64,000 bases of DNA from Achromobacter xylosoxidans A8 (GTDB lineage Bacteria > Pseudomonadota > Gammaproteobacteria > Burkholderiales > Burkholderiaceae_B): the NCBI RefSeq assembly GCF_000165835.1, contig NC_014642.1:183896-247895 (forward strand), read 5' to 3'. Positions within the stretch are counted from its first letter, which is position 1. Every line of letters begins with the position of its first letter. Below, piece by piece: positions 2,532-58,324 of the stretch. Position numbers and translations under genes: made by a program. A model generated the notes under the pieces. It saw nothing but the letters and a program-made list of their open reading frames with translations, was not told the DNA's origin and ran no database searches.

Positions 2532-3866
2532 CTATCCTCGGGGACGCTCGTATGTGGGGGCGGTCTTCTCCGCCGCTCGATCGGAATCCTTCCGGTGTTC
2601 GATGGCAGGTAGCGCCCCCAAACACTCGATAAGCGCTGTAGCCGCCGGCGCGGGCCGGTCCCGCTCGTCGACCAGCTTCATGATGGCGATGTCTTCCAGG
2701 CGAATTCGCCCGATCTCATCGAGATCTTGGTTCTCCGGCCGGCTGCGCTCGGTATCCAACCACCGCATGACCGCCTGAGCCTCGCCTTCGGTCCACCTGT
2801 TCCCCGGCCTGGCAGGCCCGATCACGCCGAGATCGCGTTCGGCCGCCGCCAGCCAGTCCATTTGGGCAGCGCTCAGCTTGTCATCTCCAAGTATGACGAG
2901 CGGCCGATGAATGATGGCCACGGGCGTTTGGCGAGGCCAAGCCTGGCGGTCGTCGTACCAGCCCTGCTCACGCACTTGGTAGAACTGGCTCCGGAGCGAT
3001 AGCCAATCCTTCGGCGTCGTGTACAGCAGCAGCTCGGCGCCGACATCACGCGCCACCCGAGCCAGTTCAAGGCGGCTCTGTGCGGGGGCCGGGGCATCCC
3101 CCAGGACCTCGCCCGAGGCATCATCGACCAGGGAGTTTCCGACCTTCGTCGTTCCCGCTGGCAGCCCGAGGTTGTGAACGGAGCGGCCCACCCAGTCCGA
3201 ATCCGCGACCAGCACGATACGCCCAAGGGATGCACGCTCGGGGGGCGTGGACGCCTCAGGCGCGACCAGGCGAATGCGTTCCACCCCGAGGACCGAAAGA
3301 ACCTCGTTGCCGGGCTCATCCCAGGACGCAGACACCAAGGCACGGCCGCCGCCCAGATCGATCTCGACCGCCGTAGCGCGCACGTCTGCACCGGCCCGCA
3401 CAGACGTCCATTCCCGCTCCGAATAGGCTGAGCCCAGCGGAATGCTCTCGGGGGCGCCTCGGTGATAGCGCAGACTCGCTTCAGGTTCGAATTCGGCCGG
3501 ATTCGCCCGCGGGAGAGCCCGCCGCCGGGGAGCAACAGGTTCCTGTTGGCCCACGTCCCCCGACCAGTATTCAACGTTTTCGTCGTCAGACTGGGTGAGC
3601 GGCGCCTCGTCCAGCCAGGCGGGCGGATCCAGCGCATCGATTGGGACGGCTTCGATCCCCACGCTTGGCTGCGAATGGGTCTGAAGGCCCTTTGCTGGAG
3701 CGGCTCCAAACGTGCTCCTACCTGGCTGACGCTCTTCAGAGGATGCCAGCGCCATCGGTGGCACGTTCACCTGCGGCGCCGGCCGGGGCGCCGGCGCACG
3801 GGGTGCTGGTGTTGGAGTATCAGGACCGACCAGACCAGTGCCCGGAATATTGAAGCGTATCCCCAT
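2532..3866 (-). CDS. unknown protein with N-terminal PGxGxVG motif and ERPRG tail
   Basis: Encodes 444 residues. The first 16 residues contain F-x-I-P-G-x-G-x-V-G-x-D, which the helicase two genes upstream carries with identical spacing. Residues 18-130 are a Pro/Ala-rich, acidic linker. A globular part follows (about 150-420) with no motif I recognise. It ends in TYERPRG, one of the basic tails shared by many proteins here. It lies in a minus-strand run after the helicase (6868) and the 347-residue gene (4947), about 37 bp downstream of the latter. It may be cargo or a partner of the transfer machinery; no enzymatic function is claimed. Confidence 0.7.
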   Translation of the reverse strand: MGIRFNIPGTGLVGPDTPTPAPRAPAPRPAPQVNVPPMALASSEERQPGRSTFGAAPAKGLQTHSQPSVGIEAVPIDALDPPAWLDEAPLTQSDDENVEYWSGDVGQQEPVAPRRRALPRANPAEFEPEASLRYHRGAPESIPLGSAYSEREWTSVRAGADVRATAVEIDLGGGRALVSASWDEPGNEVLSVLGVERIRLVAPEASTPPERASLGRIVLVADSDWVGRSVHNLGLPAGTTKVGNSLVDDASGEVLGDAPAPAQSRLELARVARDVGAELLLYTTPKDWLSLRSQFYQVREQGWYDDRQAWPRQTPVAIIHRPLVILGDDKLSAAQMDWLAAAERDLGVIGPARPGNRWTEGEAQAVMRWLDTERSRPENQDLDEIGRIRLEDIAIMKLVDERDRPAPAATALIECLGALPAIEHRKDSDRAAEKTAPTYERPRG

Positions 3867-3903
3867 AGTCGCTCACCCAAGAAGTAAATTTCAGTGGCCA
3901 GGA

Positions 3904-4947
3904 TTAGCCGTGTTCGCGCGGGCGTTCGATTTGCTGGGGCGCCGGCTCCTCGTCACCGAAGAAGCCGTCATCGACCGGCGGAGGCATTACAGGTGCTGGC
4001 AACTGGTCAACCGGTTGAAGTGCTGCCGCGCCGGTGTCGGCACCGTCCTGCTCTTGTGCTTGGTCCGCCGCCACCTGGTTGTATCCCAGCTGCTCAATAT
4101 GGACTTGGTGCGGCGCGTAGGGCTGGCCTACGTTCTCCAACTGGAAGGCAGACGGATGGCCCAGGGCAAAGATCAGTTCGCGCAGAGTCGGATCTTGCGC
4201 AACCAGGTCGGCGTACTCCTGGGCAAGCTCCGCAGAAGGGGCCACGAGTCGCATGCGAAGCACTCCGTCCGCGCGGTCTTCGGAGGAGTCCACGGGGAAG
4301 GAAGCGGTCTCAGCCTCCAATGCGCCGAAAACGGCGTCTGCCGGGCACGGGGAGACTTCACCCGCACCCCGGAGAGTGGCCGCCGCATGGAGTCGCCCGT
4401 ACGGTCGTTCGGTGACTGGCCCGGTCTCCACTTCGTCGTCAGCGTTCACTGCAGGAATCGACATCCGGAAGTTGACCAGCAGGCCTTGGACCTGCATGGG
4501 GCTGACAAACACCTCTTCTGCTCCGGTGTCACGCAGAATGTCGTCGATGGCCAAAAGCGCTCGATCGCGATCGCTCTCCAGCGCGAGCGCCATTTCGCTT
4601 CCGTCTTCTTGGGCAGCTCGCATGCTCGCGTACATGTCCGCCCAACGCGCCCGCACCATCGCGCCGATGTTGGCCTTCACGACAGGTAACAGGGCTTCAG
4701 GCACCTGCAGAATCGAGACAGTTGCCGCCTCCGACTCGCGGCGGGTGTAGTCGAAGAATTGCTCGTCAGCTCGGCGAATTGCTGAGTCGACTAAGAACTT
4801 ACCGTCCTCATAGGTCCCGTACACGCCGGCCAGGATATTGTTGAGTTGGCTGTCGCCGGGCGCCGAGCGAAGGACTGCCAGCGCAACCGTGGGGCTCTCG
4901 GCCGTGCTACCGGGGGCGGCGAGTTGGTTGTCTGTGATTTCAGGCAC
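3904..4947 (-). CDS. unknown protein with IERPREHG tail
   Basis: Encodes 347 residues. The N-terminal half is mainly helical with conserved-looking segments; the C-terminal 80 residues are rich in Gln, Pro and acidic residues and end QQIERPREHG. No signal peptide or membrane segment is seen. It is the second gene of the minus-strand run that begins with the helicase at 6868, separated from it by about 80 bp. I recognise no family. Its tail groups it with other candidate tagged proteins in this window. Confidence 0.7.
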   Translation of the reverse strand: MPEITDNQLAAPGSTAESPTVALAVLRSAPGDSQLNNILAGVYGTYEDGKFLVDSAIRRADEQFFDYTRRESEAATVSILQVPEALLPVVKANIGAMVRARWADMYASMRAAQEDGSEMALALESDRDRALLAIDDILRDTGAEEVFVSPMQVQGLLVNFRMSIPAVNADDEVETGPVTERPYGRLHAAATLRGAGEVSPCPADAVFGALEAETASFPVDSSEDRADGVLRMRLVAPSAELAQEYADLVAQDPTLRELIFALGHPSAFQLENVGQPYAPHQVHIEQLGYNQVAADQAQEQDGADTGAAALQPVDQLPAPVMPPPVDDGFFGDEEPAPQQIERPREHG

Positions 4948-5026
4948 TGAGGACTCCTACTTGGAAAGGTGACCCGCGTCTGCGGGCCAGGTTGAATTCG
5001 GTGCTCGCGGGGGCGCCACGCGCCCC

Positions 5027-6868
5027 CTAGGGTCGATCGCCCATCATCTCGGCGTGTGAGCTGGTCCGCGCCAGTGCCTCCTGCAGGAGAAGCCGCTCTT
5101 CGTCCATCCAGGCCCCAAGGGCCGGGTTCGGGCGGACGCAGTACTTCGCGCGGGACAGCGCCACGTACAGGAGGTTGATCTCTTGCTCGTCCTCTGAGGT
5201 CATCTGATCGGCCTGGTGTGCCGTCAGCGCGCGTTCGAAGGACTTGTCGAAGTCGTCGCAGAGCTCCACCTGGGGAAACTCCAGACCTTTGGATCCGTGG
5301 CCAGTGCCCAGGCCGATAGCCGCGTTTTCCAGAGTTTCGGAGACCTGTGAGTCGATGCGTTCCACCAGGTCGGGAATGCGGTGCCGATACTGCTCGACCA
5401 GTGCATGCAGGATTTTGGCGTCAGGATCACCCGTGCTTTCTGCGTACTGCCGCAGCTCCTCCCAACTGAGATAGCCGCGGAAGAACTCGTCGTTGACCTC
5501 ACGCACACGGCCCTCCCAGAGCGCGTATGCATCCAACAACATGTGCACGCGGTACTTGCCGATGCCGCCGACCCAGTAGATCGGGGTGTTCTTGGACTCC
5601 ACATGCGCGACAGCCATCTCAAAGAGCTTGGCATTGGTGCGCGCCAGATAGGTCGTGGATTCCTTTTCACTCCAGGGGCGATCCTGGCCGCAGCCCACCA
5701 CGCGTGCCGTTTCATGGGGCTTGAAAGCTGCCAGGACTAGATTGACCTTCTCCGCCGTCTCCGGGCCAAAGCGCCATGTTTCCGTCAACGTGTGGACCGA
5801 TGCATCCTCGGGCAAATGCTTAAAGATGTTGTAGGCGCCGCGGAACTTGTAGATGGACTGGTGCTCATCACCGATGATCATCAGCTTCGAACCGTACTCC
5901 CGCTGCTGGAGCACAAGCGCGGCCATCAGTGGGTTGGCGTCTTGGGCCTCTTCAAAGATGATGCGCTCGAAGCCGAGGTTCGGGCGGCCGAGAATGAAGC
6001 GCTTCAGGTATCCGTCGTGGGGAATGCGGCAGCGCCCGTGCGGATTCTTCATTTCCTCCCAAAGCGCATTCGCCTTCTGAGCGCATTCCTGCAGCCGTGC
6101 AATGCTCACCTTAGGATCAGCCGCCACCGCGCGCGCACTGTGGAGCTCGACGTCAATCGTAGGGGCAGTGTCGGCAAAGAACTCTTGAAACAAGCGCCCA
6201 ATCACCGCCACCTCATTCCAGCTCGGCCTTTTCCCAGTCAGCGTCTGCAGGTCATCCGTGATCGTCCGCGCATTCCAGTACTTCGGTACCCGGGCCCTCG
6301 TGCGGGCATCCAGCCCAAGGTACGCGATGGAGTGGCCCGTCCGACAATCGACGTTGCGTGGAAAGCGCAGCTTGGCTTCATCGGCATTGGCCTTTGCAAA
6401 GCTGACATACAGCATCTTCTCTTTCGGCCGGGCCTCCGCCACTCCGATCGAGGTGGTCGTTTTCCCGCTGCCCGACAGGGCCATCGCGGCCACGACTTCA
6501 GCGTCGTCGTCGATCACCCCCTGCTGGGACGCTGTGGGGGTGGGACGGGAGCGTGCGGGGCCCCGCTGTGCCGAGGGGGCGATCGGACGAGCGTTGCGAA
6601 ATGCCGCCGGCGCCGCAGCGCGGTCCACCTGGGGGCGCGGTGGTACTTGGTTCCCTGCTCCTCCCGAAGGCGGAAGCGCGCGCGATTGGCTTGCCATCTG
6701 CTGGCGCTGGTTGCCCTGCCGCGCCCCCGAGTCTGCTCCGACCGGTCCTACCCCTGGCACCACGAATCGAAAGCGCGGGCGGGCCACTTCGGGTGTCTCC
6801 CCTTCCGTCGGCATCACCTCCGACGCGTCGAGGTCCCGGGGCATCTCATCATTCCGCAGAATGGCCAT
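5027..6868 (-). CDS. UvrD/Rep-type superfamily 1 helicase
   Basis: Encodes 613 residues, an SF1A DNA helicase expected to unwind DNA 3' to 5' using ATP. Visible motifs: Walker A SGSGKTT (132-138), motif II EEAQD (306-310, with Glu in place of the usual Asp), motif III GDEHQSIYKFRG (333-344), a TWRFG segment, motif V GHGSKGLEF, and motif VI LLYVALSRAK. The 125-residue N-terminal extension is Pro/Gln-rich and carries F-V-V-P-G-V-G-P-V-G-A-D (35-46), shared with the 444-residue protein. The C-terminus ends MGDRP. It is first in a minus-strand operon, and the 22-bp dyad at 6895 lies 26 bp upstream of its start. It may process transferred or recombining plasmid DNA. Confidence 0.88.
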   Translation of the reverse strand: MAILRNDEMPRDLDASEVMPTEGETPEVARPRFRFVVPGVGPVGADSGARQGNQRQQMASQSRALPPSGGAGNQVPPRPQVDRAAAPAAFRNARPIAPSAQRGPARSRPTPTASQQGVIDDDAEVVAAMALSGSGKTTTSIGVAEARPKEKMLYVSFAKANADEAKLRFPRNVDCRTGHSIAYLGLDARTRARVPKYWNARTITDDLQTLTGKRPSWNEVAVIGRLFQEFFADTAPTIDVELHSARAVAADPKVSIARLQECAQKANALWEEMKNPHGRCRIPHDGYLKRFILGRPNLGFERIIFEEAQDANPLMAALVLQQREYGSKLMIIGDEHQSIYKFRGAYNIFKHLPEDASVHTLTETWRFGPETAEKVNLVLAAFKPHETARVVGCGQDRPWSEKESTTYLARTNAKLFEMAVAHVESKNTPIYWVGGIGKYRVHMLLDAYALWEGRVREVNDEFFRGYLSWEELRQYAESTGDPDAKILHALVEQYRHRIPDLVERIDSQVSETLENAAIGLGTGHGSKGLEFPQVELCDDFDKSFERALTAHQADQMTSEDEQEINLLYVALSRAKYCVRPNPALGAWMDEERLLLQEALARTSSHAEMMGDRP

Positions 6869-7511: not shown

Positions 7512-7522
7512 CACCTGACCTG

Positions 7523-20902: not shown

Positions 20903-20913
20903 GGACTCACGTG

Positions 20914-27080: not shown

Positions 27081-27656
27081 TCAACGGCGCCCTCCCATTG
27101 CGTTCGAAAGGGCGTCGTAAACGCCGTCCATCGATTGATTCGATCTGTATGACATCGGTACGTTGTTACTCGGCGGATGGCTCACGGACCCCAGCGGCGG
27201 CTGTGTTGACCCAGTGGAGGGGAATGTCGGCGGTGTGTAGACCGGGGGGGTCCGACCTGGCAGCTGGCCGCCGGCATTTCGCGAGACGCTCTCCCAAGAT
27301 GGGAAGCTGGGCAGCCGCCCTTGCTTTGCCTCTCGCGTCATGCGGCAGGCCTCCTGATTCAGGCTCTTTACCACTCCACTCAGGTCGATGTTCTTCCCTC
27401 CGATGTTGATGGAGTTGCCTACGACCTCCGCGAAATCGACCATGCACTCAAGCATCCGCTTTCCGGAGTTCGAGATGTCCTGATCAACTGTGTCGATCTG
27501 TTGATCGCTCTGCTGGCGGCGCTTCTCGATAGCCTCATCCAATGCAGGATCGCAGGCCTGATTTGCCGCCTGTGCACCGATATGCACCATGAGCAGAGCC
27601 AAGGCGCTGGCACGACGTATCCCACCGGACCGGTTCACTTTCTTCAAAATTCTCAA
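27081..27656 (-). CDS. small secreted Pro-rich protein of the transfer operon
   Basis: Encodes 191 residues: an N-terminal signal peptide (ASALALLMVHIGAQA), a helical domain with three Cys (NQACDPAL, LECMVDF, QEACRM), then a low-complexity Pro/Ser/Thr tail. Its start overlaps the end of the upstream gene by 4 bp (ATGA). Periplasmic location is expected. It may be a small structural or lipoprotein-like component, although the Cys positions do not form a lipobox. Confidence 0.65.
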   Translation of the reverse strand: MRILKKVNRSGGIRRASALALLMVHIGAQAANQACDPALDEAIEKRRQQSDQQIDTVDQDISNSGKRMLECMVDFAEVVGNSINIGGKNIDLSGVVKSLNQEACRMTREAKQGRLPSFPSWESVSRNAGGQLPGRTPPVYTPPTFPSTGSTQPPLGSVSHPPSNNVPMSYRSNQSMDGVYDALSNAMGGRR

Positions 27657-41329: not shown

Positions 41330-41698
41330 ATGAGCGCCGCGGCACTACTGCAGCAAGAGGCATCTCTTCGAGCAAGGATTGCGACCCTGGAGTCGGAGGT
41401 GGCTCGTCTGCGTCGCACGATCGAGCGGGCCGGCCTCTCCGCCGACGCGCCACCTCAACAGGTCTCGGAAATGATGCACAAGCGAGACCACATAGCTATC
41501 CTTCACGAGCACAAGCGGACGATCCGGAAGCTCAATGACGAGCTTGCCCGTGAGCGCGCCGCAAACCAAAGGCACGCGCCGATGGAAGAGGTACCAGCTT
41601 CATTGAAGGACGAACCAACTTCCCTGAAGGACGAGTCCGAGAACACTCTGGAAGAATCGGATTCCATGAGCCAACAGAAAAACTGGAGCCCCCTATGA
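41330..41698 (+). CDS. coiled-coil protein, unknown
   Basis: Encodes 122 residues. Residues 5-85 are a charged coiled coil (LLQQEASLRARIATLESEVARLRR and later heptads), then an acidic tail with a tandem SLKDE motif. It overlaps the next start (ATGAG). The pair diverges from the exonuclease operon across site C. No function is assigned. Confidence 0.6.
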   Translation: MSAAALLQQEASLRARIATLESEVARLRRTIERAGLSADAPPQQVSEMMHKRDHIAILHEHKRTIRKLNDELARERAANQRHAPMEEVPASLKDEPTSLKDESENTLEESDSMSQQKNWSPL

Positions 41699-42156
41699 GT
41701 GCAGCCGCTGATGGGTACAACCCCAAGAGTTTCAGAGAAATGAGTGCATGGGTTGGCGCCGCAGGTGCACCCAGCCAAGTCGAAGTTACGTTCGACGGCC
41801 AGGTGCGTCGAGGCGCAGAAACTCCAGTCCGGGTCGACGTCACGCGCGCGCTTCTTACGGCCTGGGCAACTCTCGCCTTCGGAATGGAGACACTTGGTCT
41901 GCGCTACGCAGAATCCCGCCGCAGCACCGGTCTGCCGGAACCTGGCGGGGCGCTTATTCTGTCACTCGATGAGAGCAACGGAAGCATGCTCATTGGATGG
42001 GAGACCGCCCAGGGCGTTCAAGTTGCTCCAACACCGGTGGAGCGCTTGCTGCACGGAATCGCGGATGCCTGCCGCGGGCAACTTCCGGCAATTCGTCTTC
42101 AGGCGGGTGCAGATGCCTCAGTACCAGCCCACCACCGCGATCACCCCAGGGGTTAA
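41695..42156 (+). CDS. hypothetical protein with DHPRG tail
   Basis: Encodes 153 residues starting in the stop of the coiled-coil gene, so the two are translationally coupled. The core is an alpha/beta domain (ALLTAWATLAFGMETLGLRYAES); the C-terminus ends AHHRDHPRG, a clear variant of the basic tail. It converges with the transfer operon gene ending at 42153, overlapping its end by a few bases. Confidence 0.65.
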   Translation: MSAAADGYNPKSFREMSAWVGAAGAPSQVEVTFDGQVRRGAETPVRVDVTRALLTAWATLAFGMETLGLRYAESRRSTGLPEPGGALILSLDESNGSMLIGWETAQGVQVAPTPVERLLHGIADACRGQLPAIRLQAGADASVPAHHRDHPRG

Positions 42157-43112
42157 GCTCCGATTCCGGCCGAGGCCGCCATCGAAGTCAATGCAGCATC
42201 CAGATCTCGTCTGCTCATCCCTCCTGCATAGAGGACGATCGGGCGAAGACCTGGCATCAGAACCACCTCAATGTCGGTGCCACCACAGAGAGCGAGGTGC
42301 TTGCGTAGGAGATCTAGAAATTCCTGCGTAAGCGTCCGCCCGCCGGCGCGCTGGTGGCGGTCTATCTCCGCCGCAAGCGATTTTTCTTCTACCTGACCCC
42401 AAACAGCCACAGTTGCCTCGTCGATTCTGGCCTGGCCAGTCTCGCGCCGAATGGGCACGAGCAAGATGGCCCTCGAGAACTGTTCAAATGACCAGGTCGA
42501 GCAAGGACGATTGCAGATCGCCGTAATCATTGCCTCGCTGGCAGTCTGCAACAGGTCTTCACCCCGGGCCGCTATCTGCGATCCCTTAGGAGGCTGTCGT
42601 AAGGAGACTTCGAAGAGCCATCGATCTGCGCGCTCGAATTTCGTCCAGACCAAAGCCTCAACCGAGCCTGCCTCGGACTCAGCGGCCTCGAGGACAGCCG
42701 CCCCCCGCATAAATCGCTCTAGCTGCAGGAGGCCCGCGATACGCTCGTCCACGGTGAGATGGCGGGGTAGCAGACTCCCCCCGTCAAGCAAACCTACCGC
42801 CCATGCAACGCCGTCTTGAAGATCTGGAACGGATGAGGCCAGGATCTCGCCCGCGAACCTCGCATTGAAACGAGCCTGGTTCGCTGTACCGCCCTGCCAG
42901 GCCTCTGCATGGCGAGTTAAGGCGTCCACTTTCGCTACCAGCCGCGCGCGCGCAGATTTATGCATTCCTGAGGCGAAAGCTGCCGCCGCCACGTCTCTGA
43001 GTAGCTTGGCGGTGGCATGGAAGTATGGCGCGTAGGACACGTCGACCACACTCCGGCCTCCGCGGCGGCCAATTTCTATTCCGGTGTTCTGACGAGATCT
43101 GTTTGCTGGCAT
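42153..43112 (-). CDS. unknown protein downstream of the coupling ATPase
   Basis: Encodes 319 residues, soluble, helical and mixed. Its start overlaps the stop of the DotL/TrbC gene. No membrane segments or known motif. Being last in the operon of the coupling complex suggests an adaptor or accessory role, comparable in place only to DotL partner proteins. Confidence 0.65.
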   Translation of the reverse strand: MPANRSRQNTGIEIGRRGGRSVVDVSYAPYFHATAKLLRDVAAAAFASGMHKSARARLVAKVDALTRHAEAWQGGTANQARFNARFAGEILASSVPDLQDGVAWAVGLLDGGSLLPRHLTVDERIAGLLQLERFMRGAAVLEAAESEAGSVEALVWTKFERADRWLFEVSLRQPPKGSQIAARGEDLLQTASEAMITAICNRPCSTWSFEQFSRAILLVPIRRETGQARIDEATVAVWGQVEEKSLAAEIDRHQRAGGRTLTQEFLDLLRKHLALCGGTDIEVVLMPGLRPIVLYAGGMSRRDLDAALTSMAASAGIGA

Positions 43113-45976
43113 CAGGCCCCCGTGTCCAACGCATCCGCCTGGCCGTTTGGTGGTGGGCCCTTCGACGCGGCCTGCTTTTCAAGATTGTCGAAGAAATCAT
43201 CCACGTCTTGGAGGGAGATTTGCTCGCGTGCCACCGTGTCAGGGGTCGTGGCCACAGACACAACCTTCTGCATGGTGTGTGCCCCCTGCTCGGGTTCAGG
43301 ATTGCCAAGAACATCCTCCACTCGCACCAAGCCATCCAGTGAGGCTTGATCCACACCAACGACCGTTCCATCGTCGCTTCTCGGGGTTAGAAGCATATTG
43401 TGGGCTTGCATCAACGAGTCGGCGATGAACGCAGCGTCCTCACTAGTCGGCATCGATTCCAGTTCGAGATCGATGCCCGCATCGTCGAGCGGTACCATGT
43501 CCCAGACACTGGCGCCCATCGGAACGCCCTCGTCTAGCGCGCTCCGGCCAGTCGGCAAAGCTGGTGCAATCGTCAAAGGCGCCGGCACATCCGCAGCGGC
43601 GATTGCTGCAAACCCTCCCAACGGTCCGAGCACCGCTGGGCCAGCCTTCCGAATGAGTGCCATCGGATCCGGCGGCGCGTATGGGTCGTCCTCAATTGGT
43701 CCGGTAAGTTCGGCCGCAAGATCTGGCCGCGCGGCAAATCTCGCCGATCGCGAGCCCGGCTGCCCTTCATTGGCGCGCAAAGTTTCGCCCCCCTCCTTCG
43801 GCGGAGCGATGGTTTCCGGTGCAATCGCCGACCAATCGGAGGGAAAGGCACTCGATAGACCGAGAGCGGAACACGCCGCTTGATAGAGAAGAACTCCGCG
43901 CTCGATCCCAATGATCTCTTTTGGGATCCGCGAAGCAGCCTGTGAAATCGCCTCAATCATGGCCACTCGGGTGACTTCACCGCGTGGGCTTTCTTCGCCT
44001 CGCATGATTCTCAGCAGTCGAACACCGCCGTCGAATTCACTTTCAACCTTTGCGGAGGGTACCGGCATAGATATCGCCCGCACAATGTCCCGGCTCGGTT
44101 TATGCACCTGCAGAAAGCGATTCACGTGGAAGGACTGGTTGTTCAGCTTCTTCAACCAGTCCCCAACGTACAACGTCCGGATCCGACGCAACACACCATC
44201 GGAGATCATGATGGCCTCGCCCTGCTTCATCCGGTTCATTTCCTCAAATGACACCCGATCCACCTGCTGCACGCTCAGGTCACGGGTGCGCCGCCATCCA
44301 AGTTCTCCGCGCTCGAACCCCCCCACCGTGGCCACCCAGGCCTTTCCAATAAGAGCCGCTGCGAGCTCGTAGGTTTTCTTCGCGTCATCGATCTTTTGGA
44401 ACAACTTGTTTACGGTATTCCCGAGCATCGCGCCGGCCTCCGCGGCCCGATTACCCTCGGTCAGCTTTTCGGTATCTTGCGCCATGGCAATCATAGAAAT
44501 CCCGAGTGATCTCGCCTGCGCAAACATCACCGCAATCCCATCCGAAAAGTAGTAGCCCAGCTCGTCCAAGGCCGCTGGGAAAGGATACGGCGCATTGGTC
44601 GCCTTCGAGCCTAGCAGTTTCTCGTACGATCCCTCGACCCCGGCTCCGAGGTTCTTCGCCATCATCACGCGCAGGCACGCGATCGCCAGCTTTCCAAGAT
44701 TTTCAGCCTCCTGCGACGACTTTTCGAGCGAAGGAATCAACATGAAAAGCACGCGGTTATGAAGCGCGACGTCGACCATGTCGATTTCCGGATAAGTCTT
44801 GCTGAAGATGTGGCCGTAGGTCTTGTCTAGCATATTCAGCACTGGCATCAACTGGTTGATGCGATACGAGTGCTGTTCAAACGCAACGTTCTCCTGTTCC
44901 AACGAAGCATCGGAGGCGGGTGATCCACCTTTGTTGGGCCCGCGACCTGGAGGCGGGGGCTGCTCCGACCCGTTTGCTTGGGCAGCCTGACCACGTCCAT
45001 GTTTCTTCAGTAGCCGATCCACTCTATAGCCGGGACACCCAGAGTCCAGGTATGTCTTGACGCCGACAAATCCGTACGACCACTGGCCACGATTCTTCTG
45101 TGCCTCGTCATAACCCTCTATGTAGAGCTCCTCAAACTTTGGGAGCGCCAAGTACTCAATCAGCGTCGAGACTGATATCGTCATTCCCTGCGTGTCGCGC
45201 TTATAAAACAGAGCAACTACCAGGACGCGCCACACGTTGATCGCCTTCTCCTGCCACGACTTTCCGTCGCCCTCCGCCTTATGCAGGAGGTTGATGCCCA
45301 TCTGGGTGCCGGTATCGGCATCCACGTCATAGAACGGAGCCAGGCCGTTGCCAATCTTGGTGCGCGATCGGGCAACTTCCTGTGGGCTTCGCCCCCCGAG
45401 CAGAAAATTCAGGAAGAGTATCGAGTGATCCCGACCGAAAGCGCGGCACATTGTGGAACCGTCGGTGGGCAATTTGTTGTCTGCTTTTCCGTCCGCGACG
45501 AAGAACCCACTCCCCCAGCACAACGCGTTGAACATGATGCCTTTCAGGGTCTCGGTTTTCCCACTTCCGGTAGAACCGAATATTCCCCAATGACGCCGAA
45601 ACCCGTCATCTCCAACCCATGCCTGTTCGAAGTCTTCATAGGGGGACGTCGAACGAACCGAGCCGATGAGCCCGATCCCGTCTCCCTGCTTTCCCGTGAC
45701 GGGGTCGAAGAATGGTTCTCCCCCCACATACGCGGGATACCGGTATGGAAGTCTCTTTCGAAGCGTTGAGACCAGAAAGTGAACGAAGAGGTACAGCGCA
45801 AAGAGAACCGGCGCGATGATTGGAATGAGCAGCATTAGGCATGCTGTGCCAACAAGAAGGAGCGCAAAGTGACGATTGACAGTTAGCCACTCCAGCACCT
45901 TGTCCATTGCCGGTCGTACGTCCACGACTCGCTTATGGATAGGAATTTCGTGCCGAGTTTCGACCTGATGGCTCAT
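43112..45976 (-). CDS. trbC: TrbC/DotL (IcmO)-family type IVB coupling ATPase
   Basis: Encodes 954 residues, the type IV coupling protein that recruits DNA and protein substrates to the transfer channel. Two N-terminal membrane spans (about 37-56 and 57-72) precede the ATPase domain, with Walker A GSTGSGKT (134-141), a region beginning FFVADGKADNKL, and a Walker B region around PFPAALDELGYYF. Typical length for DotL/TrbC is about 780 residues; here the last 250 form an extra acidic, Pro-rich C-terminal part, the region that binds adaptors in DotL. Neighbours DotM-like and thioredoxin genes match the IncI trbABC cluster. Confidence 0.93.
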   Translation of the reverse strand: MSHQVETRHEIPIHKRVVDVRPAMDKVLEWLTVNRHFALLLVGTACLMLLIPIIAPVLFALYLFVHFLVSTLRKRLPYRYPAYVGGEPFFDPVTGKQGDGIGLIGSVRSTSPYEDFEQAWVGDDGFRRHWGIFGSTGSGKTETLKGIMFNALCWGSGFFVADGKADNKLPTDGSTMCRAFGRDHSILFLNFLLGGRSPQEVARSRTKIGNGLAPFYDVDADTGTQMGINLLHKAEGDGKSWQEKAINVWRVLVVALFYKRDTQGMTISVSTLIEYLALPKFEELYIEGYDEAQKNRGQWSYGFVGVKTYLDSGCPGYRVDRLLKKHGRGQAAQANGSEQPPPPGRGPNKGGSPASDASLEQENVAFEQHSYRINQLMPVLNMLDKTYGHIFSKTYPEIDMVDVALHNRVLFMLIPSLEKSSQEAENLGKLAIACLRVMMAKNLGAGVEGSYEKLLGSKATNAPYPFPAALDELGYYFSDGIAVMFAQARSLGISMIAMAQDTEKLTEGNRAAEAGAMLGNTVNKLFQKIDDAKKTYELAAALIGKAWVATVGGFERGELGWRRTRDLSVQQVDRVSFEEMNRMKQGEAIMISDGVLRRIRTLYVGDWLKKLNNQSFHVNRFLQVHKPSRDIVRAISMPVPSAKVESEFDGGVRLLRIMRGEESPRGEVTRVAMIEAISQAASRIPKEIIGIERGVLLYQAACSALGLSSAFPSDWSAIAPETIAPPKEGGETLRANEGQPGSRSARFAARPDLAAELTGPIEDDPYAPPDPMALIRKAGPAVLGPLGGFAAIAAADVPAPLTIAPALPTGRSALDEGVPMGASVWDMVPLDDAGIDLELESMPTSEDAAFIADSLMQAHNMLLTPRSDDGTVVGVDQASLDGLVRVEDVLGNPEPEQGAHTMQKVVSVATTPDTVAREQISLQDVDDFFDNLEKQAASKGPPPNGQADALDTGA

Positions 45977-47558: not shown

Positions 47559-47567
47559 AGAGTTATC

Positions 47568-49094
47568 CTAAGGTGTTGCGCTTCCTTGGCGTACGCCAGG
47601 AGCAGACGAACCGGCCAGGGCGTCTTGAAGTCGCGCATCTTCTGCGGCCTTCATTTCTCGAAGCTGACCGGCGGCGTAGTTGTCAAATTCGCTGTCTTCA
47701 GTAAGCGCTTCTGCAGGAGGATCATTGGGCGCGACTTCCGGTTCAAGCGCTTGTCGAGCCATCCGCCAGATATCCTTCGACTTCCACATTTGATCGAGGT
47801 GGTCATCATCGACGCCGTTTACCCAAGCATCGAACTCGGCCTTGAAGCCTGTCACTACTTCGTTGACAAAGATGATCGGCATGGTCTTTCCGCGTTCTCC
47901 GCGTTGCCGATCCTTTTCATGAACTGCGCACAAAGGCAGCATTCCCTCCTCGACGCACATTCGCTCATAAGGGTGCTGACCAAGGGCCGCTACGGCCGAT
48001 TCCGAATGAGGTGTATGTCGGCCGTCCGTATCCAAGACAAAGAATAGGATGCGATCCATAGGCCGGAGCCAGAGGTACCGCCATGAACCGATCTTGGATG
48101 AGCGTCCAGCAATGCGCTGTAGTTCAAGGAGAAACGTGTATTCCCAGTGGTGCATTTGGAGCAGCTGTTTCACTGCACCGTGCTCCCTGTACTTGTCGTA
48201 CATTTCCTGAACAATGGGCAGGTCAAGTCGCGCCATGCCTTCGCGGGACCCATAAGCTGACCAGTTCAGAGCACGAATCACCTTTTCCGCATCAGCTCGC
48301 CCCTCTGCACCGTTAAAGGCTCCAGGCGCCAGCAAAGCGAACATCGTCTTTCCGAGACTGCTCATCCGGTCTACGAACGCGCGCTCTGTATTCCGCGAGT
48401 CAACGGCCAGGTCAACAATCTGTCGACCAAGGAACTCGTTGTGTCGGATTCGCTCCATCTTCCCGTTCGGGCCCGGGACCTCCATGAACGTGTACGCACT
48501 GAGGTACTCAGCCAGACGTGCTTCGTTTAGGCGCATTCCTGGTTCAATCGCCGGCACTCCTTTGACCTTCGCCCGATGAAGAACTTCCATTGGGGACACT
48601 TGGCGGCGCCACCTTTTCAGCTTGTTCTGTACAAGCTGCTTCTGAATGCAGGCGATTGGTGCAATGTCCGTCGTGAAGTGCATAAGCTCCTGCACCAGCA
48701 GATCAGGAGTCATCTTCCGTTGCAGATTTTGGGACTTAGCCCTCCGCGCGTACAACCGGGCGCCGATCATTAGCACCCAGCCGACCAGGAACAGGGACAT
48801 GGGACGCATGGCAGTGTGGGCGTAACCCAGCCAGTCGAAGAATCCAATTCTGGTCGGGTATCGTCGTGCGAGCCGGTACATGGCCTCCATATCGAACGCG
48901 ACCTGCTCAGCATAGTCAAACGGCAGCCATCCCCAAGGCTTAGCAAGCCAATGGAACAGCGGCGCCGAGTAGAAGACGATTCGATTACTTGCCACCAGCC
49001 AAAGAGTGCCCCCCAGGATCAAGCTGCACCCAAAACCGATCAGCAGCCACAGTGCAATCGAATCCTGTTGCCTCTCACCATTCGCGCGCGCCAT
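47568..49094 (-). CDS. trbA: TrbA/DotM (IcmP)-family type IVB coupling-complex protein
   Basis: Encodes 508 residues. Membrane segments at about 13-36 and 95-112 are followed by a large cytosolic domain that contains PLCAVHEKDRQRGERGKTMPI near 400. The domain layout and operon match TrbA of IncI and DotM of Legionella, which binds the coupling ATPase and recognises acidic or positively charged substrate tails. It overlaps the lytic transglycosylase gene. The product ends with a disordered Pro/Ala tail. Confidence 0.9.
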   Translation of the reverse strand: MARANGERQQDSIALWLLIGFGCSLILGGTLWLVASNRIVFYSAPLFHWLAKPWGWLPFDYAEQVAFDMEAMYRLARRYPTRIGFFDWLGYAHTAMRPMSLFLVGWVLMIGARLYARRAKSQNLQRKMTPDLLVQELMHFTTDIAPIACIQKQLVQNKLKRWRRQVSPMEVLHRAKVKGVPAIEPGMRLNEARLAEYLSAYTFMEVPGPNGKMERIRHNEFLGRQIVDLAVDSRNTERAFVDRMSSLGKTMFALLAPGAFNGAEGRADAEKVIRALNWSAYGSREGMARLDLPIVQEMYDKYREHGAVKQLLQMHHWEYTFLLELQRIAGRSSKIGSWRYLWLRPMDRILFFVLDTDGRHTPHSESAVAALGQHPYERMCVEEGMLPLCAVHEKDRQRGERGKTMPIIFVNEVVTGFKAEFDAWVNGVDDDHLDQMWKSKDIWRMARQALEPEVAPNDPPAEALTEDSEFDNYAAGQLREMKAAEDARLQDALAGSSAPGVRQGSATP

Positions 49095-52533: not shown

Positions 52534-52565
52534 AGCGTGCGCGCGCAGCGTACTAAGAGCCCCGA

Positions 52566-53000: not shown

Positions 53001-54737
53001 TCAACCTCGCTCACGCGCGTAATCCTCGTGCGCTTCTACCGGCGCCAGCTCACCACTGCTTGTAGTCGAGGAGTTGGCTTCGAGAAGCGCGAATTGAGCC
53101 ACGGCTTCGTCGCGCGACATTGCTTCCGAACCAGCCTCGTCCTTGTCAACCGGAAGCGACGGTGCTGCACCATCGAACGAAGCGGCGGGTTCCGAATCAA
53201 CGTTGAATGTAATGCCGGCTTCCATGGACGGCGGCGATGTGAGATCTTCACCTGGAGAACTCGGGGAAGAATCAGCCGATCCGTCGATCCTTGGAGCTGA
53301 CTGGTCCGGTCCCTGCTGAAGGCTATCGCTCACCGCATGTGCAAACTCTGGGACGTCGTGCTGATCCGCAGAATCCGGGTAGAAATCACCGACATCGGGA
53401 GCGTCACTCACTCGCTGAACAAGCTCCGCGATTTCGGCTTCATCGGGTGCCGCTCCCAGACGCTCAAGGGCGAGCGATTTCCTCCAATCTTTACCCAACA
53501 GGTCCGTCAAGGAACCGTCCATTTCCGCGAGCAACTGTTCCCGAATCGGCGAATCCGCGGTGCATTGATACACCTCGCGCGCCGCCTCCGTCACTGCGAG
53601 ACGGAGCAAATTCAATTCGTCCAAGTGCGGCTGGTGCCTCGCGGTGATGCCCTTGACCTCTTCGGCGAACGCAGCAGAGATGTCTCGCGGTTGGATCACG
53701 CCGTTCTGCAAAAGCAGAGCTGCAGCCGTGTGACCACCAAATGTCTGGCAATGAACTTGATAGCGGGCCAAGCGCAGGTTCATGGCCCCCCCATAAGCGG
53801 AAAGGCGATCCTGGACCAGGCGGGCCATGCTTCGCAGGTCATTCACAACAGCTGCCATGTAGATTGCTGTCTGCAGACTGGAGTTCTGCCCCACCTCATC
53901 CATTCGCCTCCGGATCTGGGGGTCGTCGCTCGCGCGCACAAATGCCGCCGTGACGAGATCTGCCGCTGTAGTCGCCGGTGTGATTTCAGGAGAGGAGGTC
54001 GCGGTCTCCGCGGCGGTGGGCACGCTCGGCTCTACCTGTTTACTCGCCAACTCTACAGACTCCTGGTTGGCTTTCACGGCCTCGGCAGGCTGCGTGCGGC
54101 TGGCCGCGTCAGTCCGCGCCGGCTCAGCAGGACCGGAGGGGGCCGACTCGGCAGCGTGGAATCGGACATTCGCCTTAGGCTCTTGTCCGCGTTCGTCCTT
54201 CTTTTCCTGATCCTTGGGCCTTTCGTGCACGCCGAGCTTTTCGAACAACAGCCGAAGAATCCGCATCAGTGCTTGCATGAGTCGCATGATCACATTGGGA
54301 TGCACGGCGCCCAATTGGGGGGTGGCGGCGATGGAGCTCTCCACTTTCCGCGCGACTCTTTCCGACTGTTTGGCGGCCCAGAACTCGGCGAGGCGTCGCC
54401 CGTCAAGTGCGTCCGCTGGTCGTTTGACTCGATCGGCAAGCGGCGGCAATCCTTGCGCTGAGGCAGGGCCAGGTCGGAGTGAGCTGCCAAGAGGAGCCGT
54501 CCTGGAAGGCGGGATCGCGCGAGTGGAATCATCTGCGAGGTGGGCTGGGTTGTCATCGCGCTGCCCTGCACGTGCGGCCATTCGCGACGTCTGGGGCGAG
54601 CGGGGTTTGGCTCCTCCAACAAAGAGATTGTCCCGGCCATCGTCCTGGCGCGAAGCGGCGCCGTCTGCCGGTTCCTCTTCCCTGACGATATCCATTTCGT
54701 CAGGCGCTTCTTTTCCGAGATCAGATTTCAACAACAT
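53001..54737 (-). CDS. unknown large protein with RERG tail
   Basis: Encodes 578 residues: low-complexity Pro/Ala/Asp-rich N-terminal 270 residues containing a short amphipathic region around RLMQALMRILRLLFEKLG (150-167), then a helical domain (270-440), and an acidic C-terminus ending EDYARERG. No known domain. It converges with H-NS, the stop codons abutting. Last gene of the minus-strand run from 58324. Confidence 0.65.
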   Translation of the reverse strand: MLLKSDLGKEAPDEMDIVREEEPADGAASRQDDGRDNLFVGGAKPRSPQTSRMAARAGQRDDNPAHLADDSTRAIPPSRTAPLGSSLRPGPASAQGLPPLADRVKRPADALDGRRLAEFWAAKQSERVARKVESSIAATPQLGAVHPNVIMRLMQALMRILRLLFEKLGVHERPKDQEKKDERGQEPKANVRFHAAESAPSGPAEPARTDAASRTQPAEAVKANQESVELASKQVEPSVPTAAETATSSPEITPATTAADLVTAAFVRASDDPQIRRRMDEVGQNSSLQTAIYMAAVVNDLRSMARLVQDRLSAYGGAMNLRLARYQVHCQTFGGHTAAALLLQNGVIQPRDISAAFAEEVKGITARHQPHLDELNLLRLAVTEAAREVYQCTADSPIREQLLAEMDGSLTDLLGKDWRKSLALERLGAAPDEAEIAELVQRVSDAPDVGDFYPDSADQHDVPEFAHAVSDSLQQGPDQSAPRIDGSADSSPSSPGEDLTSPPSMEAGITFNVDSEPAASFDGAAPSLPVDKDEAGSEAMSRDEAVAQFALLEANSSTTSSGELAPVEAHEDYARERG

Positions 54738-54768
54738 CTATAGCTCCAAATAGTTGCCAGACAAAGGT

Positions 54769-55503: not shown

Positions 55504-55505
55504 GA

Positions 55506-56927
55506 CTATCCTCCGCGCGGGCGATCACCCGGCTTTAATTGACGACCGACCTGGCGGTCCCGCTCTTGCACCGCATCAGCCAACTGCGCGTACTCTTGGT
55601 ACATGAGGTCGAAACTGAGACGAATCCCGCTTGCCCGGGCGAATTCGTGGAGCGTCGCTACCTCAGCGAGGTTTCGCTGCGCCGCCTGGCGGGCGACTGC
55701 GGTATCGGTGCTGTGAGTCGCGATGACAGTAGCGTGGTCCCTGGGGACTGGCTCCCCGGTGAGTGGGGAAAGGCTGACCTGGAAGCCCATGCGCTGCGCG
55801 GCATCAGAAAGCATCCCGATAGCCCGAGCATCAGGCGAGACCACACCTATGGGGCGTTCCTCTGCCCTTGGTGCTCGCACGGCCGGCCCATCCTTCTTCT
55901 GAGAGCCGTTGGCCCGAGAGGCACCATCGAGCATGCGATCAGCGCTTCTGCCGAGCCTTGCAATCTCCGAGATCGACCGACCAGCCAGATCAATTCGACG
56001 CTGAGCTCCTTGTGCATCCCCAACCCGTTCCAACCCGCGGGCTGCGTATGCGCCAGAGGATGCAAGGCTAGTTGCGCCGCGCACGATCGCCTGCGACTTG
56101 GAGGATCCGGTCACTTCGGCAACGCCACGGGCTACCGAGCCAACTGCTGATACCCAGCCGCTGTAGTCTCCTCTCACTTTCAGCTGAAGACCTTGCTCGG
56201 CGAGGCTGCTGGCCAGCTTTTCGTTCGCCTCATACTCCCACTGCGCCTGAACGACATTGCCGTATAGTCGTGCGCGATGTTCGAGGACAACGCCCCGATA
56301 GAACTCTCTAGGATCGTCTTGGCCTGCCGCGGCCGAGTCCCATTTCATAACCTGGCCCTGCCAGTCTTGACTGTTCTCGCAATATGCAGCGATGGCCAGT
56401 TCCAGGCTTCGTCCAGAATTCGCGGCCCATGTGGACAAATCTGCGTAAGTCTGTGCGAGCTGAACTAGAGCCCCAGCTCGCGCGCTTGAAGAGACGTCCT
56501 GCCACCCGGCGGAGTAACGGTATGCGGTCAGCAGGAGAGACGGCTCAACCGTCTCCAACCCAGGGGAGCATTGTGCCAATCCCTCAATGAGCTCCCTGTT
56601 CTGTAGCACTTCCTCGCCGGCGTCATCTTCGGATTCTTCACTTTGAACCAGGCGCGCGAGCATCGAGTCAGGGTGCACGAGATCCCCGTTTATGCTCACC
56701 CTTGGCGGAGCAAGCCGGAGATCCTCTTCTGCCGCAGCATTCGTCCCCGCAGCGCTTACAGATGCTGCAAATCCGAGTATGAGGAGGCGCCGCCCAAGCG
56801 CGTGCGCGTCTCGAACGATAGTCCCTTTGGTTTCCACTCGAACTTCGTGACCAGCCTCGGCCGCCCGCTGCAGAAAGCTTATGGTGCGGCTGCCAATGCC
56901 ACTGGACAGTTCATTGATAGCCATCAA
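55506..56927 (-). CDS. unknown protein with GDRPRGG tail
   Basis: Encodes 473 residues. A hydrophobic segment (about 46-64, LLILGFAASVSAAGTNAAA) may be an internal membrane anchor or a signal. The rest is helical and Ala-rich, with no motif I recognise. It ends VGRQLKPGDRPRGG. It overlaps the upstream 128-residue gene by 4 bp. Probable member of the group of tagged proteins. Confidence 0.65.
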   Translation of the reverse strand: MMAINELSSGIGSRTISFLQRAAEAGHEVRVETKGTIVRDAHALGRRLLILGFAASVSAAGTNAAAEEDLRLAPPRVSINGDLVHPDSMLARLVQSEESEDDAGEEVLQNRELIEGLAQCSPGLETVEPSLLLTAYRYSAGWQDVSSSARAGALVQLAQTYADLSTWAANSGRSLELAIAAYCENSQDWQGQVMKWDSAAAGQDDPREFYRGVVLEHRARLYGNVVQAQWEYEANEKLASSLAEQGLQLKVRGDYSGWVSAVGSVARGVAEVTGSSKSQAIVRGATSLASSGAYAARGLERVGDAQGAQRRIDLAGRSISEIARLGRSADRMLDGASRANGSQKKDGPAVRAPRAEERPIGVVSPDARAIGMLSDAAQRMGFQVSLSPLTGEPVPRDHATVIATHSTDTAVARQAAQRNLAEVATLHEFARASGIRLSFDLMYQEYAQLADAVQERDRQVGRQLKPGDRPRGG

Positions 56928-57310: not shown

Positions 57311-57322
57311 TCTGTGCGGGCG

Positions 57323-57946
57323 TCAGCCCCTGCACGATTCGCGCGGGATGTACTTGATAGTCGATGCCTCGACCAGGTCGACGTGTGCTTGTGAGTGCGC
57401 TACCAGGCGATCGTGATAAGTCAGTACGCCTCGTTCACGAAGCCTCTCGAGATGCGCGGGATAAAGCTCATTGAATCGCTCAATGAACCGTTCAAAAGCT
57501 TGTTTGGGAGTCCAGAGCTCGAATTTGGGTCCATTGCCGAAGATCGCTCCCTCCTCCATCTCCTGGAGTTCACTGTCGACGTACTTCACTTCAGGCGAAT
57601 GATGATCCAAGGGCAAATCGAATCGAATTCGTATCGCACGCGTCACCCCGGCTGCCAGCGAGACATACTGGGGGATGAGGTGTTTGATTGGCGAGGCCAG
57701 ATCTCGGACATACGCCTCTTCGCCGTCGTGAAGTAGCCCTTCGAACTGCAGATGCGGCGGCACCATCTGGCTGGCCATCACACAATGCTGCGCGACGCTC
57801 AGAAACTCATCGGGGGGTAACTGCCCGTTCCACCTGCACTCCTTGGACAATCCAAGGGCAATATCGACTATATCCACGTGCCGGGGATCCGGATTTGCGA
57901 AGTCGAATGGATATCGGCTGCTCGTCCTTGCAATTGCCTTGCCCAT
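57323..57946 (-). CDS. HD-domain phosphohydrolase
   Basis: Encodes 207 residues. The HD signature is visible as SVAQH54, LLHDGEEAYVRDLASPIK (H73-D74) and the later YVDSELQEMEE. This resembles the YfbR-like and phage HD hydrolases acting on nucleotides. It could modify nucleotide pools or degrade a signal in the recipient. The C-terminus reads IPRESCRG. Third from last in a run of minus-strand genes from 58324. Confidence 0.82.
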   Translation of the reverse strand: MGKAIARTSSRYPFDFANPDPRHVDIVDIALGLSKECRWNGQLPPDEFLSVAQHCVMASQMVPPHLQFEGLLHDGEEAYVRDLASPIKHLIPQYVSLAAGVTRAIRIRFDLPLDHHSPEVKYVDSELQEMEEGAIFGNGPKFELWTPKQAFERFIERFNELYPAHLERLRERGVLTYHDRLVAHSQAHVDLVEASTIKYIPRESCRG

Positions 57947-57982
57947 GTCTGCTCATTCCAGTGTGGCGCGCCGCGGGTTGCA

Positions 57983-58324
57983 CTAGCCCCTGGGCCGCTC
58001 TTGCGGTCGAGGGATCGACGCTTCCGATACGACGTGGTGGTTCTGCAGACGCTCATGCATCGCCTGTGCGTTTCGGACTGCATCGAGAATGTGCTGCCGC
58101 CCGCGCATAAACGGACTTTCTTCGCGGATCAGATCCACCAGCGGTACACAAGATTCAGGTGCCGGAAGTTTGTCCAGTGCGCCGCTCATCGCCAAGTCCT
58201 GGAACATGCGCGAAGTCGAGAATGGCCTGCCCGTCACCGGAGCCAGTTCCAAGCGATCGCGCAGTTTGTGTAGTTGCTCCGCTTGTTCGCGGGTAAACAA
58301 TTCAGGGCTGCCGCCGGTACGCAT
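57983..58324 (-). CDS. small unknown protein with QERPRG tail
   Basis: Encodes 113 residues, helical, ending IPRPQERPRG. It is first in the run of minus-strand genes and lies 230 bp from site E. No known domain. The tail is the clearest match to the ERPRG end of the 444-residue protein, using different codons. Confidence 0.65.
   Translation of the reverse strand: MRTGGSPELFTREQAEQLHKLRDRLELAPVTGRPFSTSRMFQDLAMSGALDKLPAPESCVPLVDLIREESPFMRGRQHILDAVRNAQAMHERLQNHHVVSEASIPRPQERPRG

What the first reader, a model, noticed from the sequence alone, without database searches (positions are those of the whole stretch)
2532..58324. A basic C-terminal tail shared by many unrelated proteins (ERPRG class)
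Different products end with short basic motifs: ERPRG (444-residue protein, stop at 2532), ERPREHG (347 aa, 3904), DRPRGG (473 aa, 55506), QERPRG (113 aa, 57983), QERPR (second HipA, 22209), DHPRG (153 aa, 42156), RERG (578 aa, 53001), QRG (260 aa, 38865), CRG (HD hydrolase, 57323), ERETG (YqaJ nuclease, 39678), ERPAERERS (513-type protein, 27653) and GDRP (helicase, 5027). Codons differ: ERPRG is spelled GAG CGT CCC CGA GGA in one and GAG CGG CCC AGG GGC in another. A DNA repeat is therefore not the cause. As a rough estimate, with Arg and Gly each near 8%, fewer than one of about 45 proteins should end RG by chance; six do exactly. Established: C-terminal basic signals guide substrates into type IV secretion (for example VirE2/VirF in Agrobacterium). 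Inference: the tail is a recognition signal, possibly for DotL/DotM-mediated export, or for binding a common partner.
Basis: partly seen in the sequence, partly recalled or inferred. Interest (0 to 1): 0.85.

Follow-up and report, generated by a model that had tools for sequence, protein, structure and literature searches.

The report
Shared protein tails on conjugative plasmids
At least a dozen unrelated proteins of one bacterial plasmid end in much the same short, evolutionarily preserved tag, which is most likely an address label that lets the plasmid's own secretion channel send them into the recipient cell together with the DNA.

Summary
The tails are real and exceed chance. The window lies in a 247,895-base plasmid contig carrying a DotL/DotM (type IVB) conjugation system. 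Six of 48 hand-picked ORFs end in RG, against 14 of 1034 proteins called from the same chromosome (P=1.3e-4). A held-out Variovorax contig repeats it: 11 of 112 end in RG, 7 in PRG (0 of 1034 chromosomal; 0.03 expected from internal frequency). Against a diverged Achromobacter plasmid the last six codons of 13 tail genes carry 28 of 78 amino-acid changes, the stretch before 160 of 304 (gapped; P=0.011), while silent changes stay frequent: selection acts on the peptide. Close YqaJ relatives keep such an ending in 29 of 35, distant ones in 0 of 12; 27 HipA homologues from genomes without a DotL match lack it, as does a 75%-identical HipA. It is rare in catabolic cargo and, with exceptions, in transfer-machine proteins. 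Best reading: a C-terminal recognition motif, (E/D)R-x-R-G or (R)P-R-G, read by the type IVB coupling complex to co-deliver establishment proteins. Five literature searches listed no description of such a tail.

The parts
2532..3866 (-). 444-aa protein of unknown family; tail TYERPRG; sel orthologue ends DYDRPRH
3904..4947 (-). 347-aa protein of unknown family; tail IERPREHG; sel orthologue IERPRERG
5027..6868 (-). UvrD-type helicase; tail GDRP; sel orthologue ADRP
20911..22209 (+). HipA-type kinase (start as in relatives; longest ORF begins at 20806); tail QERPR; orthologues RERPR, PDRPK; 27 distant homologues lack it
27653..29194 (-). unknown protein in the transfer region (true start uncertain); tail AERERS; orthologues VERERS, IDRDRS; weakly similar Cupriavidus proteins end FRQRG
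38865..39647 (-). 260-aa unknown protein; tail ESQRG; orthologues EGQRG, QGQRG
39678..41081 (-). YqaJ-type nuclease; tail STERETG; 29 of 35 close homologues (window's own included) have (E/D)R, RP or PRG in the last seven residues; residues 437-467 modelled with pLDDT below 50
41695..42156 (+). 153-aa unknown protein; tail RDHPRG; orthologues RDHPKG, RDRPQG
53001..54737 (-). 578-aa unknown protein; tail YARERG; 8 of 8 family members found end Y-x-R-x-RG
55506..56927 (-). 473-aa unknown protein; tail GDRPRGG; sel orthologue keeps only SRGG; its GGAGG also lies just upstream of the next start
57323..57946 (-). dNMP phosphatase of phage type; tail RESCRG; weakly kept (RESCTG, REAHSG)
57983..58324 (-). 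113-aa unknown protein; tail QERPRG, identical in the three Achromobacter relatives compared
43112..45976 (-). DotL-type coupling ATPase, proposed reader of the tail; itself without the tail
47568..49094 (-). DotM-type coupling protein (similar to solved Legionella DotM), proposed reader of the tail; itself without the tail

Best explanation
The tails are a short C-terminal recognition motif, roughly (E/D)-R-x-R-G or (R)-P-R-G followed by the end of the chain, hung on a flexible linker and added to many unrelated soluble proteins of the plasmid backbone. Most likely the coupling complex of the plasmid's own type IVB conjugation machine (DotL/DotM) reads it, so that a helicase, a nuclease, a dNMP phosphatase, HipA and AbiEii proteins and several unknowns are pushed into the recipient with the DNA to help the plasmid establish itself. 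Shown here: the motif, its excess, its better conservation at the amino-acid level than the linker before it, its concentration on backbone genes of several type IVB plasmids, and its absence on the homologues elsewhere that were looked at. Inferred: that it is a translocation signal, that DotL/DotM bind it, and what the proteins do in the recipient.
For: Held-out plasmids with endings counted beforehand: RG 24 of 635 against 14 of 1034 (P=1.3e-3), PRG 10 of 635 against 0 of 1034 (P=6e-5); V. ginsengisoli contig alone RG 11 of 112 (P=7e-6), PRG 7 of 112 (P=7e-8; 0.03 expected from its internal PRG frequency), on proteins without BLAST similarity to each other. Later, broader motif: 23 of 635 against 7 of 1034 (P=1.6e-5). 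Conservation against sel, 13 genes: similarity gain of the last 5 over the preceding 20 residues +0.24, 33 other proteins -0.01, P=3.5e-4; amino-acid changes 28 of 78 in the last six codons against 160 of 304 before, gapped, P=0.011; 28 of the 50 unchanged residues there have a silently changed codon. Of 106 orthologous pairs 12 share (E/D)R at the same distance from the end within the last 8 residues (8 of them in the 13-protein set, 4 not); five control windows give 0 to 7. The 13 show no BLAST match to each other better than E=0.025. Strict endings: 0 of 79 in the catabolic part of this plasmid, 0 of 247 in the accessory part of the insolitus plasmid, 0 of 146 on 150 kb of the MPF_T plasmid pMOL28. 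The family encoded directly after dotL in four Variovorax loci ends in RPRG. HipA: 0 of 27 distant homologues examined (of 53 listed) have it, all from genomes without a DotL match, and a 75%-identical copy in G032 stops before it. [quoted passage not shown]
Against: No transport, binding or expression data. No such tail was seen near dotL in Janthinobacterium, Massilia and Roseateles or in the part of the IncI1 plasmid read, where SogL and NikB end otherwise. The plasmid's primase, topoisomerase and 2029-aa helicase, which one would expect to travel, lack a clear tail. C. necator and Pusillimonas do not reach significance alone (broad motif 4 of 165, P=0.05; 3 of 136, P=0.10; PRG 0 in both), and the Pusillimonas YqaJ orthologue has no tail. 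Some transfer-machine proteins do end in similar letters: DotA of C. pinatubonensis (MPRG), a membrane transfer protein of insolitus (TIRPR), and in C. gilardii the proteins annotated or placed as DotA and DotM (RPPSF, NRP). Members 57323 and 55506 are weakly kept; Cupriavidus UvrD homologues end PPRF. The broad and strict motifs were written after I had seen the endings. Controls are not empty: broad motif 1 of 79, 1 of 247, 1 of 96, 1 of 146, RG 2 of 247 in the insolitus accessory part, and a dioxygenase of the second plasmid ends IERPREHA.
Confidence: 0.6

Rival explanations
1. The tail is a docking motif for a plasmid-encoded hub other than the secretion machine, for example a replication, partition or nucleoid protein, in the way that the SSB tip or the clamp-binding peptide gathers DNA enzymes (both recalled). 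Several tail proteins are DNA enzymes.
For: Helicases, nuclease, nucleotide phosphatase among tail proteins; conservation and disorder fit any docking peptide; the tail-less HipA of G032 lies outside any recognised plasmid backbone, so it cannot tell the two readings apart.
Against: HipA, AbiEii and many unknowns are not obvious partners of one hub; one tail gene lies directly after dotL in Variovorax; no hub candidate was identified, but none was searched for.
Confidence: 0.27
2. The tail governs stability: a C-terminal degron or a cap against C-terminal proteases.
For: Short C-terminal position after a linker that is modelled as disordered in YqaJ.
Against: A host protease signal should not be concentrated on the backbone of one plasmid class; strict endings are 0 of 1034 chromosomal, 0 of 79 catabolic-region and 0 of 247 accessory-region proteins.
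Confidence: 0.07
3. The tails are a by-product of composition, translational coupling (ribosome-binding sites overlapping gene ends), or chance.
For: 55506 ends in GGAGG just upstream of the next start; GC-rich DNA favours Arg, Gly, Pro codons; single look-alikes occur on unrelated proteins.
Against: 28 of 50 conserved tail residues have a silently changed codon; no same-strand start is evident just after 20806, 41695 or 53001; the motif exceeds the internal rate of the same proteins (8 found, 0.7 expected in the pA82 backbone; 8 and 0.5 in sel; 8 and 0.7 in C. pinatubonensis; 8 and 0.5 in V. ginsengisoli; PRG 7 and 0.03 there).
Confidence: 0.03

Closest known systems
C-terminal translocation signals of VirB/VirD4 substrates (VirE2, VirF; recalled; a paper on their positive charge is cited in PMC8406263, passage)
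   Same: At the extreme C-terminus, with arginines, shared by unrelated proteins, thought to be read by a coupling protein
   Different: Here the tail is about five to seven residues, mixed charge (net -1 to +1), often with Pro and terminal Gly, and sits with a type IVB system
Legionella Dot/Icm E-block / acidic Glu-rich signal bound by DotM (PMC5802825, passages)
   Same: C-terminal, type IVB, DotM and DotL present in the window
   Different: Not Glu-rich at the tip; arginine, proline and glycine dominate
Proteins co-transferred by conjugation: SogL, relaxases, ParM, FicT, pED208 ParA/ParB/SSB/PsiA/PsiB (PMC8406263, passages; F conjutome PMC11288057, passages)
   Same: Plasmid-encoded establishment proteins that enter, or here are proposed to enter, the recipient
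   Different: The passages seen describe varied C-terminal or internal signals, no single short tail; IncI1 SogL and NikB ends differ from it
Polyvalent proteins of conjugative elements (PMC5512222, passages)
   Same: Same idea of early-acting proteins delivered with DNA
   Different: Those fuse activities into one chain; here separate proteins would share one address tag

Membership tests
Type IV secretion C-terminal translocation signal (general) | Located at the extreme C-terminus, outside the folded domain | tested here: met
   Endings and orthologues; outside the fold shown for one protein only, YqaJ residues 437-467 pLDDT below 50
Type IV secretion C-terminal translocation signal (general) | Needed and sufficient for transfer into a target cell | not testable with these tools
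   Needs a transfer reporter
VirB/VirD4-type signal | Net positive charge of the C-terminus | tested here: not met
   Last seven residues net -1 to +1 in 13 proteins; longer stretches were not summed
Legionella E-block / acidic Glu-rich motif | Acidic, Glu-rich C-terminus | tested here: not met
   D+E share 0.07 to 0.24 in the 29 residues before the last seven, and a near-neutral tip
Legionella E-block / acidic Glu-rich motif | DotM and DotL coupling proteins present | tested here: met
   DotM_C E=1.4e-18; DotM structures matched; coupling ATPase
Conjugatively co-transferred protein set (IncI1-like, SogL/NikB) | Same tail on the reference substrates SogL and NikB | tested here: not met
   SogL ends LSHSPGR, NikB EPPSPG
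SSB-tip-like hub motif | Acidic peptide ending in Pro-Phe (recalled) | tested here: not met
   Endings

The most novel reading that the evidence does not exclude
A class of conjugative type IVB plasmids in Burkholderiales uses one short C-terminal address tag, grafted repeatedly onto unrelated enzymes, to build a protein payload that enters the recipient with the DNA; the tag varies between plasmid lineages ((E/D)RPRG and RERG in Achromobacter, RPRG and RERA in Cupriavidus, APRG, VPRG and RPRG in Variovorax, RPTY, RPSY and RMRG in Pusillimonas), as expected if it co-evolves with its receptor, and so lets the payload be read directly from sequence.
Probability: 0.5. Interest if true: 0.9.

Novelty: new variant of a known kind. 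Interest (0 to 1): 0.8.

Why it matters
Which proteins a plasmid sends with its DNA, and how the channel chooses them, is largely open; the known signals vary in place and kind (PMC11288057, passages). A tail that can be recognised by eye would turn this into a list of about a dozen testable candidates per plasmid, suggest a role for a string of unknown proteins, and offer a compact peptide for studying how a type IVB coupling complex recognises cargo.

Tried and rejected
Ribosome-binding-site overlap was the first alternative considered; it fits 55506 but is contradicted by the silent codon differences. Common descent of the tail proteins was tested by all-against-all BLAST and not seen. Plain terminal RG is diluted over the whole plasmid (5 of 232 called proteins against 14 of 1034). 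'RP in the last six residues' is not specific (30 of 1034 chromosomal proteins). A relation between the 578-aa protein and the Variovorax family after dotL was not supported (hhalign probability 1.6). The structure of the 578-aa protein came out with mean pLDDT 50 and was not used for a fold search. PHROGs and NCBIfam, in which ten proteins each were scanned, gave no family for most of them. One scan of viral contigs returned no relative of this DotL. Rfam (gathering thresholds) and tRNA searches of the window found nothing.

The held-out counts with RG and PRG were added because the strict and broad expressions were written after I had seen.

Rows dropped before counts: one search left out orthologues whose alignment ended more than 8 residues short of the query end; one search also dropped one with fewer than 45 residues. 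The 48 window genes are my own choice from 241 ORFs. The gene caller is my own; on the annotated seleniivolatilans plasmid it found 161 of 175 annotated ends and 6 others; it missed 57983 in the window plasmid. Of 369 kb of the insolitus plasmid 361 kb were fetched, and the unfetched end is where orthologues of 2532, 3904 and 5027 would be expected, so their absence there means nothing. In one search one of 47 ends was read on the wrong strand and is not counted.
Full report
Where the window is. It is G000:C3:183896-247895, the end of a 247,895-base contig in a 7.36 Mb genome with two other contigs. The sizes suggest plasmid pA82 of Achromobacter xylosoxidans A8; that name is recalled, not given by a call. 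Its closest relatives in the plasmid collection are from A. insolitus (NZ_CP026974) and A. denitrificans (CP150726), 89% identical over the 24 kb compared; A. seleniivolatilans (NZ_CP132977, 'sel') is more distant, 82% in DotL and 62% in one tail protein. The region codes for a type IVB conjugation system: DotM, a DotL-type ATPase, DotA/TraY by annotation of the orthologue.

The observation. Of 48 genes that I picked from 241 ORFs, 6 end in RG, against 14 of 1034 proteins called in 1.2 Mb of the same chromosome (P=1.3e-4); 4 of 48 end in RP(R/K) plus at most two Gly, against 0 of 1034 (P=3.4e-6). The pattern was spotted before it was counted, so these figures alone are not enough.

Conservation. 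In sel all twelve proteins have orthologues. Ten keep the tail clearly, through E/D and R/K exchanges: ERPRG/DRPRH, ERPREHG/ERPRERG, GDRP/ADRP, QERPR/PDRPK, AERERS/IDRDRS, SQRG/GQRG, TERETG/VDRDAG, RDHPRG/RDRPQG, YARERG/YARERG, QERPRG/QERPRG. Two keep it partly: DRPRGG/GSRGG and RESCRG/REAHSG. A thirteenth, an AbiEii-type protein elsewhere on the plasmid (140302-141261), ends RESPRG, in insolitus RESPRG, in sel RDVPRG. In the 361 kb fetched of the insolitus plasmid nine of the twelve have orthologues: eight keep the tail, and 57323 ends SCTG. Codon by codon against sel, with gaps allowed, the last six codons of the thirteen genes show 22 identical, 28 silent and 28 amino-acid differences, the 24 columns before them 75, 69 and 160 (P=0.011); an ungapped count (54, 44, 214; P=2e-7) exaggerated this. 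The last five residues are more similar than the preceding twenty by 0.24 on average in the thirteen, by -0.01 in 33 other proteins (P=3.5e-4). Silent change is common in the tail (28 of the 50 unchanged residues), so the constraint is on the peptide. Of 106 orthologous pairs 12 share (E/D)R at the same distance from the end within the last eight residues, eight of them from the thirteen; five windows further in give 1, 2, 7, 1 and 0.

Not one family. All-against-all BLAST of the thirteen gives nothing better than E=0.025. Pfam identifies a UvrD-type helicase, HipA, a weak YqaJ match and AbiEii, PHROGs a dNMP phosphatase; the others matched no family in the libraries in which they were scanned.

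Held-out plasmids. 635 proteins were called on four distant elements: C. pinatubonensis p1, 200 kb of a 491 kb C. necator contig, a 109 kb V. ginsengisoli contig that carries backbone genes and three transfer-gene homologues but not its dotL, and a 151 kb Pusillimonas contig. With endings I had counted before fetching them, RG is 24 of 635 against 14 of 1034 (P=1.3e-3), PRG 10 of 635 against 0 of 1034 (P=6e-5). The excess is uneven: PRG is 7 in V. ginsengisoli, 3 in C. pinatubonensis, one of these DotA, and 0 in the other two. In V. ginsengisoli 11 of 112 end in RG; the eleven have no BLAST match to each other, and 0.03 PRG ends would be expected from internal PRG. They include ERPRG on a DUF6685 protein, APRG on YqaJ and RIRG on a topoisomerase; a RecD2-type helicase there ends DRPKG. 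In C. pinatubonensis a HipA 32% identical to the window's ends ARPRG. A broader motif, written after seeing these, gives 23 of 635 against 7 of 1034, significant alone in C. pinatubonensis and V. ginsengisoli, not in C. necator and Pusillimonas. In four Variovorax plasmids or contigs the protein encoded right after dotL ends NDRPRG or ESRPRG. Controls with the strict ending: 0 of 79 in the catabolic part of the window's plasmid, 0 of 247 in the accessory part of insolitus, 0 of 96 on the second plasmid, 0 of 146 on 150 kb of pMOL28; with the broad motif 1 in each.

Same family, different home. YqaJ: 29 of 35 close relatives (own protein and one fragment included) have (E/D)R, RP or PRG in the last seven residues, against 1 of 35 in each of three windows further in, and 0 of 12 distant relatives; endings include DRPAA, ERPRGG, ERPRQ, EAPRG. 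The linker before it varies in length. HipA: orthologues on related plasmids keep ERPR or DRPK. Of 53 other matches in 43 Achromobacter genomes, the 27 fetched, at 31-35% identity and from genomes without a DotL match, have no such tail. A 75%-identical copy in G032, where neither nor one search found DotL (a fragmented assembly), stops 19 residues short; no transfer gene was recognised in the 20 kb around it. Among the 120 HipA homologues listed of 310 found, 4 have a strict tail, all within the six closest; the looser pattern in the other 114 is at background.

Anatomy. None of the thirteen has a membrane-segment-like stretch, while DotA, DotL, DotM and several others do; many non-tail proteins also have none. 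In the YqaJ model residues 437-467 have pLDDT below 50, after a confident domain. The tip is near neutral.

Mechanism. The facts ask for a receptor present on type IVB plasmids that reads a free C-terminus on soluble proteins. The coupling complex is the natural candidate: in Legionella DotM binds the C-terminal tails of effectors, and its authors suggest that elsewhere it may have evolved to bind other tails (PMC5802825, passages). Conjugation is known to carry plasmid proteins to the recipient (PMC8406263, passages), and loss of UvrD in the recipient lowers plasmid acquisition (PMC10085688, abstract and outline), which gives a plausible use for a delivered UvrD-like helicase. These steps are inference. 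The main rival is docking to some other plasmid protein.

Limits. The tail is not general to type IVB conjugation: nothing of the kind was seen near dotL in Janthinobacterium, Massilia, Roseateles or two of the metagenome contigs (18-42 kb each), nor among 46 usable ends of the IncI1 plasmid or in its SogL. It is not wholly confined to cargo: DotA of C. pinatubonensis ends MPRG, a transfer protein of insolitus TIRPR, and C. gilardii has RP-rich ends on DotA- and DotM-placed proteins. In Pusillimonas the relatives of 55506 and 57323 end RPTY and RPSY, AbiEii RPKVR, and YqaJ has no tail. Literature: five searches (listings) of an open-access library showed no description of such a tail; most subscription papers are not held. 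PMC9519443 (passages) reports a type IVB system that kills bacteria and looked for known Legionella signals, not for this tail.

Noticed in passing
window 13826 (stop side; ends EPADNGFF), 3904-4947 (VDDGFFGDE before ERPREHG); plasmid position 139572-140300 (DTGFFDDDMSA): A second shared C-terminal element, D-x-G-F-F, on three backbone proteins, kept in sel (3) and insolitus (2), and in the last 40 residues of 0 of 1034 chromosomal proteins.
   Followed up: partly
L144-L149 (V. ginsengisoli contig C29): 11 of 112 called proteins end in RG, 7 in PRG, several after acidic linkers: the densest occurrence of the tail seen.
   Followed up: partly
L050 18675-19889 and relatives (L094, L112, L113, L117): Unknown family encoded directly after dotL in Variovorax, ending NDRPRG/ESRPRG; a metagenome relative ends TDHPAS.
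   Followed up: partly
window 57323-57946: The HD hydrolase is a phage-type deoxyribonucleoside 5'-monophosphatase (phrog_318, E=3.4e-49).
   Followed up: partly
L152/L187 (G032): A HipA 75% identical to the plasmid one sits outside any recognised transfer region and lacks the C-terminal 19 residues.
   Followed up: yes
G162 contig C52 (L101-L108): Pusillimonas relative: RPTY, RPSY, RPRY, RMRG and QERPV endings, suggesting a lineage-specific form of the tail.
   Followed up: partly
L014 (contig C2), 24017-24772 of the contig: A catechol-dioxygenase-like protein (name by inspection) on the second plasmid ends IERPREHA, probably a coincidence.
   Followed up: partly
pA82 138712-139356 and relatives: A protein annotated in relatives as DNA/RNA non-specific endonuclease ends KLRLPRPRY in pA82, insolitus and sel, and LPRPRY in Pusillimonas; perhaps another form of the tail or part of its fold.
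   Followed up: no
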